Positions 12,351-64,000 of a stretch of 64,000 bases of DNA are shown piece after piece. Location: NCBI GenBank assembly GCA_944325635.1, contig CALVBD010000004.1, positions 62,001 through 126,000 on the forward strand, read 5' to 3'. The notes under the pieces were generated by a model. That model had not been told where the DNA came from. It saw only the letters and a program-made list of their open reading frames with translations, and ran no database searches. The DNA comes from Candidatus Gastranaerophilales bacterium. Lineage in GTDB: Bacteria; Cyanobacteriota; Vampirovibrionia; Gastranaerophilales; Gastranaerophilaceae. Numbering within the stretch: position 1 is the first letter of the stretch; every line of letters begins with the position of its first letter. The position numbers and the translations under genes were made by a program.

Positions 12351-12408
12351 GTGTACGGTTGAAATTTAACGAAAAATATGTTAGAATAATAAAAAAGGAG
12401 GATGAAGT

Positions 12409-13303
12409 ATGAAAAGCCTTGATATGATTGCGTTTGCGGGGGGGGGGGCAGTCTAAATCTAAGCAATATCCTGAAAATAGCCTTGAGTTGGCACCTGAGC
12501 AAGTAAACAAAAAGCACACGATAATTCACAAATCGTTTTTCATTGAGAATGCTTTTTCAAAAATAAATCACTTAAACGGTTTTACCTTAGCGGAAGTTTT
12601 AATTACTCTTGGGATAATTGGCGTTGTAGCAGCAATGACACTACCAGCATTGGTTCAAAAACAACAGGACAAAATCACTGTTACAAAACTAAAAAAGGCT
12701 TACAGTGTGATTAGTCAGGCCTACTTAATGGCAAGAAATGAAAACGGAGAAATAAATAACTGGGGATTTGCAGGAAATATTACAAATTCAGACAGAGACG
12801 AAAACGGGGTATTTGACTCTTCTGTTTATGATAATAGTGAGCTTTTTTGGTCAAAATTAATTCCGTATATGAAGGTTACTTCAACTTGTTATGACAGGGG
12901 AACTAACTGCAAAATACCAAGTCAGTATAACTTATCAGGCAGTATCAGATATAACAAAAATACCACAACTCAAATAAAACTGGCTGACGGTACGGTCTTT
13001 CTTGGTGGGTGGCTGGCTAATATTAACTGTACTCAGACGGTTTCATGCGGGGATTTTTCTGTTGATGTGAATGGCCCTGAGAATAAGCCTAATACTGTTG
13101 GGAAAGATGTTTTTTACTTCGCTATTTATCAAAATAAAATTGTTCCTTATGGTGGAAATACAGGTTCAGCTACATTCGATAAACGGTGTAAAAATGGCGG
13201 TGACGGTTATGGTTGTACAGCTTGGGTAATTTATAATGAAAATCTTGACTATCTAAAGTGTCCTGATCAGTTATCTTGGGATGGCAATACTAAATGTAAG
13301 TAA
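12409..13303 (+). CDS. type IV pilin-like protein, out of frame at an 11-G tract
   Basis: AGGAGG lies seven bases before the ATG at 12409. That frame reads MKSLDMIAFAGGGAV and stops at 12456, because the tract at 12438-12448 has 11 Gs. With 10 Gs the frame continues as ...FAGGGQSKSK into a long ORF ending at 13303. The main domain has the prepilin motif GFTLAEVLITLGIIG about 55 residues in, then a hydrophobic helix and a Cys-containing C-terminal domain. No good ribosome binding site exists downstream of the tract. It is paralogous to the decayed gene at 48370 (TVTKLKKAYSVISQAY; GYGCTAWVI). It is probably phase-variable; a sequencing error in the homopolymer is the alternative. Confidence 0.8.
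12438..12448 (+). repeat. poly-G tract (11 G) in pilin leader
   Basis: Eleven consecutive Gs begin inside codon 10 of the pilin-like gene. A homopolymer this long is rare in AT-rich DNA. The only other one in this window is at 63542-63552, in the same position of a second pilin gene. Confidence 0.95.
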
Positions 13304-37003: not shown

Positions 37004-37990
37004 TTAAATCAGTAATACCAGAATACCGGCAAGAGCCATCGCAGGACCAAATGGCAGATAGGTCAGGGTATCCGGATTTTTAAGTCCGCGTATTATCTGT
37101 ACGCAAGCCCAGATGCCGAGTACAAGCATTATTAAAATTGATGTAAATAAAACATAATCGTTATTAAAGAAAGGTTGTTTCTGTAAGAAGAAATATCCAA
37201 TCGCGTATGCGAAGAATAGAACAAGTGGAATGAGTATATTCCAATCTTTTCTTACGATAAGTTTTTTCAAGAAAAGCGGAAGTGTGAATATTAGCTGGAT
37301 AATTACGCTCAAAACAAGAATAATAAGAACGTTTTTCCATCCGAACACTGCACCTAATCCAGCGGCAATAAAAGAATCACCTTCTCCGAATGCTCTGGAG
37401 CCCGCAAGCAGATAACCAATTCTTGCTGCTATTTCCATTATTACAAATCCTGCAATAACGCCTGCAACCGAAATCGTAAGCGGATTATTCAGAACCCATT
37501 CCGTAGAAATGTGAAAAGTAGTTGAAGATGTATTCACATTTACAATTTGCATTGCCATAAGATATATCGCATACACAAGCCCTGTTCCAATAAGAATATA
37601 TGTATGCCCGTCAAAAACTACGCGTTCTTTTATATCCGTCACGGAAATTACAATCAGTAAACTCGCGATTATAAATCCGAAAAGTGTTTCAAATGAAATT
37701 CCGTATTTTAAGAATACAAGAACAAATATTATGCCAGTTACAAATTCTACAATCGGATATTGAATACTGATTTTTTCTTTGCAGAAATAACATTTTCCTC
37801 GAAGAAGAATGTATGAAAGTATCGGGATATTGTGCCACCATTTTAATCTGTTGCCGCATTTGGGGCATTTGGAAGGAGGCATAACAATTGATTCTCCGCT
37901 GAATGCTCTCAGGATAACTACATTTAAAAAACTGCCTATAACTGTTCCGATACAGAAGATAAACAGAAGTAAAATTATAAGAAATAACAT
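37004..37990 (-). CDS. prepilin peptidase (A24 family, PilD/GspO)
   Basis: A 328-residue polytopic membrane aspartyl protease that cleaves and N-methylates prepilins. The N-terminal domain has GSFLNVVILR and two CxxC pairs (CPKCG, CYFCK, ~40-75). The catalytic aspartates are in SVTDIKERVVFD (~142) and GEGDSFIAA (~203). GAGGG before the ATG at 37990 fixes the start. It lies 25 bp after the sigma-factor gene. It is the obvious processing enzyme for the four pilin-like loci in this window. Confidence 0.93.
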   Translation of the reverse strand: MLFLIILLLFIFCIGTVIGSFLNVVILRAFSGESIVMPPSKCPKCGNRLKWWHNIPILSYILLRGKCYFCKEKISIQYPIVEFVTGIIFVLVFLKYGISFETLFGFIIASLLIVISVTDIKERVVFDGHTYILIGTGLVYAIYLMAMQIVNVNTSSTTFHISTEWVLNNPLTISVAGVIAGFVIMEIAARIGYLLAGSRAFGEGDSFIAAGLGAVFGWKNVLIILVLSVIIQLIFTLPLFLKKLIVRKDWNILIPLVLFFAYAIGYFFLQKQPFFNNDYVLFTSILIMLVLGIWACVQIIRGLKNPDTLTYLPFGPAMALAGILVLLI

Positions 37991-38015
37991 AATGTCCCTC
38001 AATTCTTATTATAAA

Positions 38016-62374: not shown

Positions 62375-63476
62375 TAAAACATATTTTATAACAGGTGGTG
62401 GTACAGGCGGTCATATATATCCTGCAGTGGCGGTTGCGGATGCTCTTGCCGATGAGTGTAATACAGTTTATTATGTCGGTAATCCTGATAATTTGGAATT
62501 TGATATTATTCAACAGAAAAATTATGCATTTTTGCCGGTGAATATTCACGGAATGCCCCGTAAGATGGGCTTACCTCTTATTGAATGGTGTTTTCAGCTT
62601 GCGGCCGCTGTGCTTAAGTCATTGTATTATTTGAATAAATATAAACCAGATGCGGTATTTGGCACGGGAGGATATGTTTCTGCGCCAATTTTAATTGCAT
62701 GTATAATTAAAAAGATTCCTTATATGATGCATGATTGTGATGCACAGCCGGGGCTTGTTACAAGGAAACTTGCTCCTTATGCAAGTGCCGTATCCCTAGC
62801 TTTTGAATGTGCTAAAAATTTTATTGATAACAAAAATTGTTTTGTGAACGGAAATCCTATAAGAACTAAATTCAAGGCATTATTAAAATCAGACGCAAGA
62901 AAGGCAATGGGATTTGTAAATAGTAAGATTACTGTATGTATAATGGGCGGTTCTCAGGGCGCTCGAACTATCAATGATGCGGCTGTTGAGATATTAAAAA
63001 CGCTTACGGATAAGTATGATGTTCAGGTAATATTTCAGACAGGTAAAAAGAATTTTGAGCGTGTTGTTGAGCAATTGCTAAAAATTTATCCTGAATATGA
63101 ATCTGATAAAAACTTGATAGTCAAACCATATTTTGATGATATGGTGACAGTGTTGAAAGCTGCCGATATAGCTGTATCCCGTGCAGGCTCATTAAGTTTG
63201 TCAGAGATTGAGGCGAGCGGAATTGCGTCGATTTTAATTCCATACCCGCATGCGGCTGCTGATCATCAGCGAAAAAATGCAAAGTATATGGTTGAGCAAG
63301 GTGCTGCGTTATATTTGGAAGATCATGATGTTACTGAAAAAACTCTGTTGGAAAATCTTACTCTTTTGATTACAAATAGAGAAAAACTTGCTAAATTACA
63401 AGGGGCGGCAATGAAACTTGCGAAATACGACGGCGTTGAAAAAATCGTATCCCAGTTGAAAGAAATTGCAAAATAG
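62367..63476 (+). CDS. murG: lipid II-forming GlcNAc transferase MurG
   Basis: A 369-residue membrane-associated GT28 enzyme. It has YFITGGGTGGHIYPAVAVADAL at the N-terminus, GTGGYVSAPILIA near residue 95, CIMGGSQGARTINDA near residue 192, and SRAGSLSLSEIEASGIASILIPYPHAAADHQ near residue 273. The first eight bases overlap ftsW. A TATAAT-containing promoter for the next pilin lies at its stop. Confidence 0.96.
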   Translation: MSDKTYFITGGGTGGHIYPAVAVADALADECNTVYYVGNPDNLEFDIIQQKNYAFLPVNIHGMPRKMGLPLIEWCFQLAAAVLKSLYYLNKYKPDAVFGTGGYVSAPILIACIIKKIPYMMHDCDAQPGLVTRKLAPYASAVSLAFECAKNFIDNKNCFVNGNPIRTKFKALLKSDARKAMGFVNSKITVCIMGGSQGARTINDAAVEILKTLTDKYDVQVIFQTGKKNFERVVEQLLKIYPEYESDKNLIVKPYFDDMVTVLKAADIAVSRAGSLSLSEIEASGIASILIPYPHAAADHQRKNAKYMVEQGAALYLEDHDVTEKTLLENLTLLITNREKLAKLQGAAMKLAKYDGVEKIVSQLKEIAK

Positions 63477-63512
63477 GTTATAATAATAAAAGGAAAAGTT
63501 TTGGAGGGGTTT

Positions 63513-64000
63513 ATGGAAACTATTGATATGACTGGATTTGCGGGGGGGGGGGCAATCTCCTGAAAGCCAAAGAGAAGGATTTATAAACTTAGTTAAGAAA
63601 TTATGTGCGGCAGGTTATATTAAAAGGATACGGAAACAAGTTTCGCAAAATCTCTTAGTTAAAGTATGCACAATTAATGTTTCCAATACCACGTCAAAAA
63701 GAATTGCATTCACCCTTGCAGAGGTACTTATTACTTTAAGCATTATCGGAATTATTGCTGCAATGACGCTGCCTGCTCTCATTGGCAAGTATAAGGAAAA
63801 AGTTCTGGTCACAGCGGCTAAAAAAGGTTATTCTACAATAACCAATGCAATAAATAAGTGGAATGCTGAGAATGATATTGTTGGGGAATATTTGACATTT
63901 TTTTCTGCTTATAATTCAGATGAGGAACGTTTAAAAGCATTATCAAAACAACTTAATATTGTAAAATTTTGTCCTGAAAATGATGTGGAACCTTGCGGCG
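63513..64000 (+). CDS. type IV pilin-like protein, out of frame at an 11-G tract (partial)
   Basis: TGGAGGGG lies a few bases before the ATG at 63513. That frame reads METIDMTGFAGGGAIS and stops at TGA 63561-63563, because the tract at 63542-63552 has 11 Gs. With ten Gs the frame reads ...FAGGGQSPESQ and stays open to the window end through RIAFTLAEVLITLSIIGIIAAM. The pilin helix and the start of a globular domain follow. The leader before the FTLAE motif would be about 65 residues, unusually long. It is probably the same phase-variable design as the gene at 12409. Confidence 0.8.
63542..63552 (+). repeat. poly-G tract (11 G) in second pilin leader
   Basis: Eleven Gs begin inside codon 10, exactly as in the 12409 gene. 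The flanks are also alike (gatatga..g..tttgc before; ca.tct after). Confidence 0.95.

What the first reader, a model, noticed from the sequence alone, without database searches (positions are those of the whole stretch)
63513..64000. Second pilin gene with the same leader and the same 11-G tract
51 kb away an independent pilin-like gene has the same leader plan: M-x3-D-M-x2-F-A-G-G-G-Q-S, about 30 of 34 bases identical around the tract, and 11 Gs at codon 10. Again one G too many separates a good start codon from an open pilin frame. Two loci with the same design argue against chance and suggest a family of contingency pilins sharing a poly-G leader cassette.
Basis: partly seen in the sequence, partly recalled or inferred. 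Interest (0 to 1): 0.92.

Follow-up and report, generated by a model that had tools for sequence, protein, structure and literature searches.

The report
Poly-G frame gates on gut pilins
An uncultured gut bacterium carries about forty hair-protein (pilin) genes, each behind a short start segment with a run of about 11 Gs that leaves the gene one letter out of frame, so it looks like a large set of normally-off surface proteins that each cell can switch on by gaining or losing a G.

Summary
The genome (Gastranaerophilales relatives) holds 56 runs of 8 or more Gs; 40 belong to type IV pilin genes. In 36 a good start codon runs into the tract and the pilin frame is open but out of step: one G too many in 28, two in 6, in frame in 2. 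The plan is confined to one family (about 140 of 361 sampled genomes match); each genome has its own leader sequence, shared by unrelated pilins. In the window's genus the +1 offset holds at tract lengths 10-13, because length co-varies with leader and downstream frame (permutation P<5e-5). Pilins out of frame in both of two compared genomes are under purifying selection (dN/dS 0.06-0.25), so these are not pseudogenes. A second architecture puts the G-tract mini-ORF before a terminator-like hairpin and a pilin with its own start. Best reading: default-off, one-slip-from-on phase switches, as shown for Bifidobacterium breve (fusion type) and Streptococcus gallolyticus (attenuator type) pili. 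Switching itself is inferred; programmed frameshifting is not excluded. New variant of a known kind: scale, a shared per-genome cassette, a conserved off-by-one setting, and both architectures in one lineage.

The parts
63456..63484 (+). Promoter-like TTGAAA-17-TATAAT in the 3' end of murG
   Evidence: sequence; TATAAT at -34 from ATG
63503..63510 (+). Shine-Dalgarno-like TGGAGGGG
   Evidence: sequence, approximate limits
63513..63541 (+). Leader METIDMTGF(A), 29 nt from ATG to the tract
63542..63552 (+). Poly-G tract, 11 Gs; 10 (or 13) would put ATG in the pilin frame
63561..63563 (+). TGA that ends the ATG frame 8 nt after the tract
63553..64000 (+). Pilin frame, open from the tract to beyond the window (294 aa in all); FTLAE motif at 63709
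12359..12387 (+). Promoter-like TTGAAA-17-TAGAAT of the first copy
   Evidence: sequence
12409..12437 (+). Leader MKSLDMIAF(A) of the first copy
12438..12448 (+). Poly-G tract, 11 Gs, first copy
12454..12456 (+). TAA that ends the ATG frame 5 nt after the tract
12449..13303 (+). Pilin frame of the first copy (284 aa after the tract), FTLAE motif at 12581
37004..38002 (-). Prepilin peptidase (Peptidase_A24 match at 37280-37672), the only one found in the genome
   Evidence: G000:C4:99280-99672 converted to window coordinates; ORF

Best explanation
The tract is a frame gate in the leader of a type IV pilin. A ribosome starts at the SD-ATG, reads about 10 codons into the G run and, at the sequenced length, meets a stop 4-12 nt after it, so no pilin is made (off). 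Loss or gain of one G by slippage during replication joins the ATG to the open pilin frame (on). Each pilin has its own promoter and gate, so a population would carry many on/off combinations of about 40 pilins, mostly off. A second form puts the same G-tract mini-ORF before a terminator-like hairpin and a pilin with its own start; there the gate would decide whether a ribosome reads into the hairpin and lets transcription continue. Shown: anatomy, spread, frame statistics, purifying selection, the hairpins. Inferred: slippage in living cells, the effect on pilin production, antitermination.
For: Own genome: 36 clean cases, 28 with offset +1, 6 with +2, 2 in frame. 160 fused genes from 28 genomes: 106/35/19, so in-frame is 12%, not a third. 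In the window's genus offset +1 occurs at n=10, 11, 12 and 13; permuting lengths within genomes never reaches the observed count in 20,000 trials (73 of 98 against a mean of 51.7; G005+G007+G008 29 of 40 against 16.1). A stop within 12 nt in the current frame in 93 of 125 collapsed cases against 56 in the third frame. In the own genome 25 of the 36 pilins have at most 17 codons between tract and motif, mostly with no start codon. dN/dS 0.06-0.25, e.g. 0.07 for L098 against G006 L371, both out of frame. Copies alike after the tract differ by one G (L128 G11, L151 G12; L117 G11, L154 G10). Non-pilin tract genes of the same genome are in frame in 3 of 6, pilins in 2 of 36 (P=0.015). The same layout is proven to switch pili in B. 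breve (PMC9187656), and a leader-length attenuator switches Pil1 in S. gallolyticus (PMC3894217).
Against: No reads or strain series were available, so tract variation within a population was not seen; lengths are MAG consensus values, and the B. breve paper found an annotated G11 to be mostly G12. Two close ortholog pairs (98% pilin identity) both keep 11 Gs. mutS1 is present, so slippage may be slower than in classical phase-variable genomes. A pure switch does not by itself explain why +1 is preferred over the equally silent +2.
Confidence: 0.65

Rival explanations
1. Programmed recoding: the +1 setting is the working state, and RNA polymerase (or the ribosome) slips on the G run at a fixed low rate, so every pilin is made at a throttled level from each gene.
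For: Offset +1 is kept across tract lengths in the window's genus; the stop after the tract is kept in the current frame; the G run is predicted to pair with a CU-rich segment just downstream (CU motif in 78 of 201 loci against 6.5 expected; MFE -11.3 against -7.4).
Against: G047 and G360 are mainly set to the opposite offset (G130 and G184 mixed); 19 of 160 are plainly in frame; a ribosomal slip would need only 7 Gs, not pure runs of 10-13; no general excess of a downstream hairpin; in G009 most copies are not joined to a pilin.
Confidence: 0.2
2. The leader is mainly an RNA or leader-peptide regulator (attenuator); the tract matters through RNA pairing or ribosome pausing, and tract length is secondary.
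For: 27 loci with a standalone mini-ORF, in nearly all followed by a terminator-like hairpin, and a pilin with its own SD-ATG; SD pairing probability 0.44 against 0.29; covarying short hairpins right after the tract in G010 (CTGAC-TGA-GTCAG, CAAC-TGA-GTTG, CTGCC-TGA-GGCAG).
Against: All 36 own-genome copies analysed are open from tract to pilin and cannot make it without a frame change; no Rfam family reaches its gathering score in 8 loci.
Confidence: 0.1
3. Decaying pseudogenes, or a sequencing/assembly error of one G.
For: Most copies are out of frame; MAG assemblies; some contigs end just after the tract.
Against: dN/dS 0.06-0.25; open frames through 9-52 codons in 36 of 36 copies; many independent assemblies; the offset sign differs between genera; the offset is kept at four lengths.
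Confidence: 0.04

Closest known systems
Bifidobacterium breve UCC2003 sortase-dependent pilus G-tract switch (bbr_0113, bbr_1889; PMC9187656)
   Same: Short upstream ORF with SD, G10-G12 tract early in the pilin gene, annotated length out of frame, second ORF without its own start; gut commensal; in-frame variants make pili.
   Different: Two loci and LPXTG sortase pilins there; here about 40 type IV pilin genes per genome, with a genome-specific leader shared by diverged pilins. Replication slippage was shown there, not here.
Streptococcus gallolyticus Pil1/Pil3 attenuation-like phase variation (PMC3894217)
   Same: Repeat-bearing leader ORF ending before a terminator hairpin; a frame change extends the leader into or past the hairpin upstream of a pilin gene.
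   Different: GCAGA repeats and one leader per pilus operon there; here a poly-G mini-ORF repeated 17 times in one genome (G009), in a lineage that also uses the fused form.
Poly-G/poly-C contingency loci of Campylobacter and Neisseria (general knowledge; PhasomeIt PMC6321876)
   Same: Pure G runs of 9-12 near the 5' end of surface-protein genes.
   Different: Those repertoires are mixed on/off over unrelated genes; here one pilin family, nearly all off and one step from on, with mutS1 present.

Membership tests
Simple-sequence (poly-G) phase-variable locus | Pure homopolymer far longer than chance near the 5' end of the coding region | tested here: met
Simple-sequence (poly-G) phase-variable locus | Tract length decides whether the start codon is in frame with the functional ORF | tested here: met
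Simple-sequence (poly-G) phase-variable locus | Downstream ORF intact and under purifying selection | tested here: met
Simple-sequence (poly-G) phase-variable locus | Length differs between close relatives or copies | tested here: inconclusive
   near-identical copies differ by one G, but two close ortholog pairs share n=11
Simple-sequence (poly-G) phase-variable locus | Mixed lengths within one population with an expression change | not testable with these tools
   no reads or cultures
Type IV pilin / pseudopilin | Prepilin motif (G/A)|FTLAE with hydrophobic helix | tested here: met
   PF07963 over cut-off; 85 over cut-off in the genome
Type IV pilin / pseudopilin | Prepilin peptidase in the genome | tested here: met
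   PF01478
Type IV pilin / pseudopilin | Assembly into a filament | not testable with these tools
   -
Programmed frameshift gene | One direction of shift conserved among relatives | tested here: not met
   +1 in the window's genus, mostly the other offset in G047 and G360
Programmed frameshift gene | Conserved stimulatory structure | tested here: inconclusive
   no general hairpin excess; predicted G-tract:CU pairing enriched
Pil1-like attenuator (second architecture only) | Leader stop before the terminator; a one-unit frame change reads into or past it | tested here: met
   by sequence in most of 27 loci, mainly one G009 family; antitermination untested

The most novel reading that the evidence does not exclude
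The constant off-by-one setting is the working state: dozens of pilins are made by a fixed rate of transcriptional (or ribosomal) slippage at a conserved poly-G leader, a genome-wide recoding throttle for one protein family, with the same cassette re-used as an attenuator.
Probability: 0.2. Interest if true: 0.85.

Novelty: new variant of a known kind. Interest (0 to 1): 0.64.

Why it matters
If right, a widespread lineage of non-photosynthetic gut relatives of cyanobacteria holds one of the larger pilin switching repertoires described, built from one reusable cassette and set by default to off. It offers a natural multi-copy experiment for two open questions: how G-tract lengths are kept one slip from on, and whether a commensal uses phase variation to show one or a few pilins at a time. 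It also puts two proven pilus-switching layouts, fusion and attenuation, side by side in one lineage. The held library gave no paper describing it (subscription journals and preprints are mostly absent there).

Tried and rejected
Universal +1 rule: rejected, G047 and G360 carry mainly the other offset. Tract-length equilibrium as the cause of the offset: rejected for the window's genus by permutation; untestable for the named MAG set, where configurations are uniform. General downstream hairpin: not supported (P=0.06). Known RNA family: only chance-level matches below gathering. Loss of mismatch repair as cause: mutS1 is present in 358 of 367 genomes. A start in the pilin frame inside the leader: none with a Shine-Dalgarno in the typical short-leader copies. 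Spread beyond the family: at most a few matches per genome in other families of the class, bar one genome (G442) with 38 matches against 18 in the reversed control, not followed up. No structure prediction was run; the pilin motif is clear from sequence.

Full report
WHAT IS THERE. At 63513 a start codon with a strong Shine-Dalgarno opens a leader METIDMTGFAGGG; the G run 63542-63552 has 11 bases; the frame then stops at 63561. The pilin frame is open from the tract to FTLAEVLITLSIIG at 63709 and on past the window end, 294 aa in all. The 12.4 kb gene is built alike. The two mature pilins share 40% identity over 166 residues, yet 30 of 34 bases around the tract agree.

GENOME. The window is G000:C4:62001-126000 of a 2.0 Mb, 13-contig genome. 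It has 56 runs of 8 or more Gs. Forty are tied to pilin genes: 36 with a clean SD-start in fused form, three with an atypical start (L068, L089, L112), and one (L077) with a separate pilin start. Of the 36, 28 have one G too many, six have two too many and two are in frame. PF07963 gives 96 matches, 85 over its cut-off. In the 30 of these examined, the pilins without a tract mostly have ordinary short in-frame leaders such as M-R-K-G|FTLAE, so tract leaders are an added module. One leader has a broken tract, GGGGTGGGGGG, still 11 nt and still +1. -10-like TATAAT boxes sit some 20-55 nt before most of the ATGs, so the genes look like separate units.

RELATIVES. The exact leader is found in MAGs named Candidatus Gastranaerophilales, Melainabacteria and Scatousia. 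A general pattern (GGAG, 14-44 nt, G10) matches 143 of 383 genomes in the order, nearly all in one family, and is almost absent from other families of the class. Each genome has its own leader consensus, e.g. ATGAAYAAATCATTAAACCGCCAC in G130, ATGAAAGATATTTGTTGGAATTTC in G360, ATGCAAAAAGTAGATATAGATAGAATTTC in G009. Related mature pilins carry different leaders in different genomes, while unrelated pilins share a leader inside one genome. Leader and pilin therefore evolve apart, by recombination or concerted change.

FRAME. Over 160 fused genes in 28 genomes the offsets are +1 106, +2 35, in frame 19. In the window's genus +1 is kept at lengths 10, 11, 12 and 13, because length goes with leader length and downstream frame; shuffling lengths within genomes never reached the observed count in 20,000 trials. 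G047 and G360 have mainly one G too few (n=10, on at 11), while G130 and G184 are mixed. The named MAGs CALVAS, CALVAX, CATLFB and CASGAK have mostly n=12, on at 11. So the resting state is usually silent and one step from on. A stop within 12 nt in the current frame is found in 93 of 125 collapsed cases, against 56 of 125 in the third frame. Related copies make all these P values optimistic.

ARE THE GENES ALIVE? Yes: dN/dS 0.06-0.25 in pairs, most of them out of frame on both sides, and the stretch between tract and motif is open in 36 of 36 own copies. Non-pilin tract genes of the same genome are in frame in 3 of 6, so the off bias belongs to the pilins.

SECOND ARCHITECTURE. In G009 (17 loci), G005 (6), G007 (3) and L077 the G-tract mini-ORF stands alone: MQKxxIDRISGGGATD-stop in G009, then in nearly all a terminator-like hairpin (GCCGTG-CACGGT, or AGTCAGCCA-TGGCTGATT followed by TTTT), then a pilin with its own SD-ATG about 140-170 nt downstream. 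The current frame usually ends before the hairpin. In most loci a one-G change makes a frame that reaches to, into or past it; L331 and L380 are already in such a frame. This is the layout of the S. gallolyticus Pil1 switch (PMC3894217). Within G009 the copies are one family, so they count as few independent cases; that the hairpin terminates, and that translation prevents it, are inferred.

RNA. A CU-rich motif follows the tract in 78 of 201 loci (6.5 expected), and tract plus 40 nt folds better than tract plus pilin body (-11.3 against -7.4 kcal/mol). I take this as masking of the G run, which can pair with the anti-Shine-Dalgarno of 16S rRNA, but that is inference. In G010 short stems directly after the tract vary in sequence yet stay paired. 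There is no general hairpin excess, and nothing in Rfam reaches gathering score.

MECHANISM. Favoured: replication slippage, default off, one slip from on, as proven for B. breve pili with the same layout (PMC9187656). Programmed slippage remains possible because +1 is held so tightly in one genus. Against it stand the opposite setting in other genera, the in-frame minority, and tracts longer than a ribosomal slip needs.

LIMITS. Tract lengths are MAG consensus values; no population data; contigs of G010 often end just after the tract. Start codons were chosen by rule (SD score), and a few may be wrong. The named MAG set was fetched with a pattern that demands the leader and at least 9 Gs, and the other sets with patterns that demand 9-10 Gs or more; only the own-genome set is unbiased down to 8 Gs.

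Noticed in passing
G000:C1:29972 and 30948 (L064): Two tandem paralogues with G11 and G10 runs in the same late position of a long ORF (ALIGAGAYGIFLAQFVK...IH-GGG); one in frame, one +1.
   Followed up: partly
G000:C5:55723 (L096), C1:145679 (L067), C1:691937 (L079), C1:99926 (L065, 17 Gs): Poly-G runs in genes that are not pilins: glycosyltransferase-like proteins (judged by eye, not searched) and a long repetitive adhesin-like ORF; half of the six non-pilin genes examined are in frame.
   Followed up: partly
L306 (G047) and L300 (G020): Pilin leaders with poly-C runs (11 and 10 Cs) read as proline, in frame; the switch base may be swapped.
   Followed up: no
L109 (own genome) and L368 (G006): A tract pilin of two species identical over 170 nt upstream bar one base beside the tract, and over the first 150 nt of the mature part, suggesting recent transfer.
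   Followed up: partly
L077 (own genome) and L277 (G156, another genus): Leader and tract look identical across genera (ATGAAAAGCTCAATTATAGCTTCAAAACTCAGAC-G11-CTTCACTAG).
   Followed up: no
L090 and L116, between tract and pilin motif: A GC-rich repeat (GGGGCCCGCCCCGCAGATGGCGGGAACGGGGCCGGAGTAACG...) sits inside the prepilin leader, kept in frame; possibly a small inserted element.
   Followed up: no
G128 loci L252, L253, L257: A FTLAEGGRRPLLN segment with a second prepilin-like motif before the real one.
   Followed up: no
L120, L140, L150, L154 (CAOJDT = G010): Contigs end about 20-60 nt after the tract, as expected when many near-identical leaders break an assembly.
   Followed up: no
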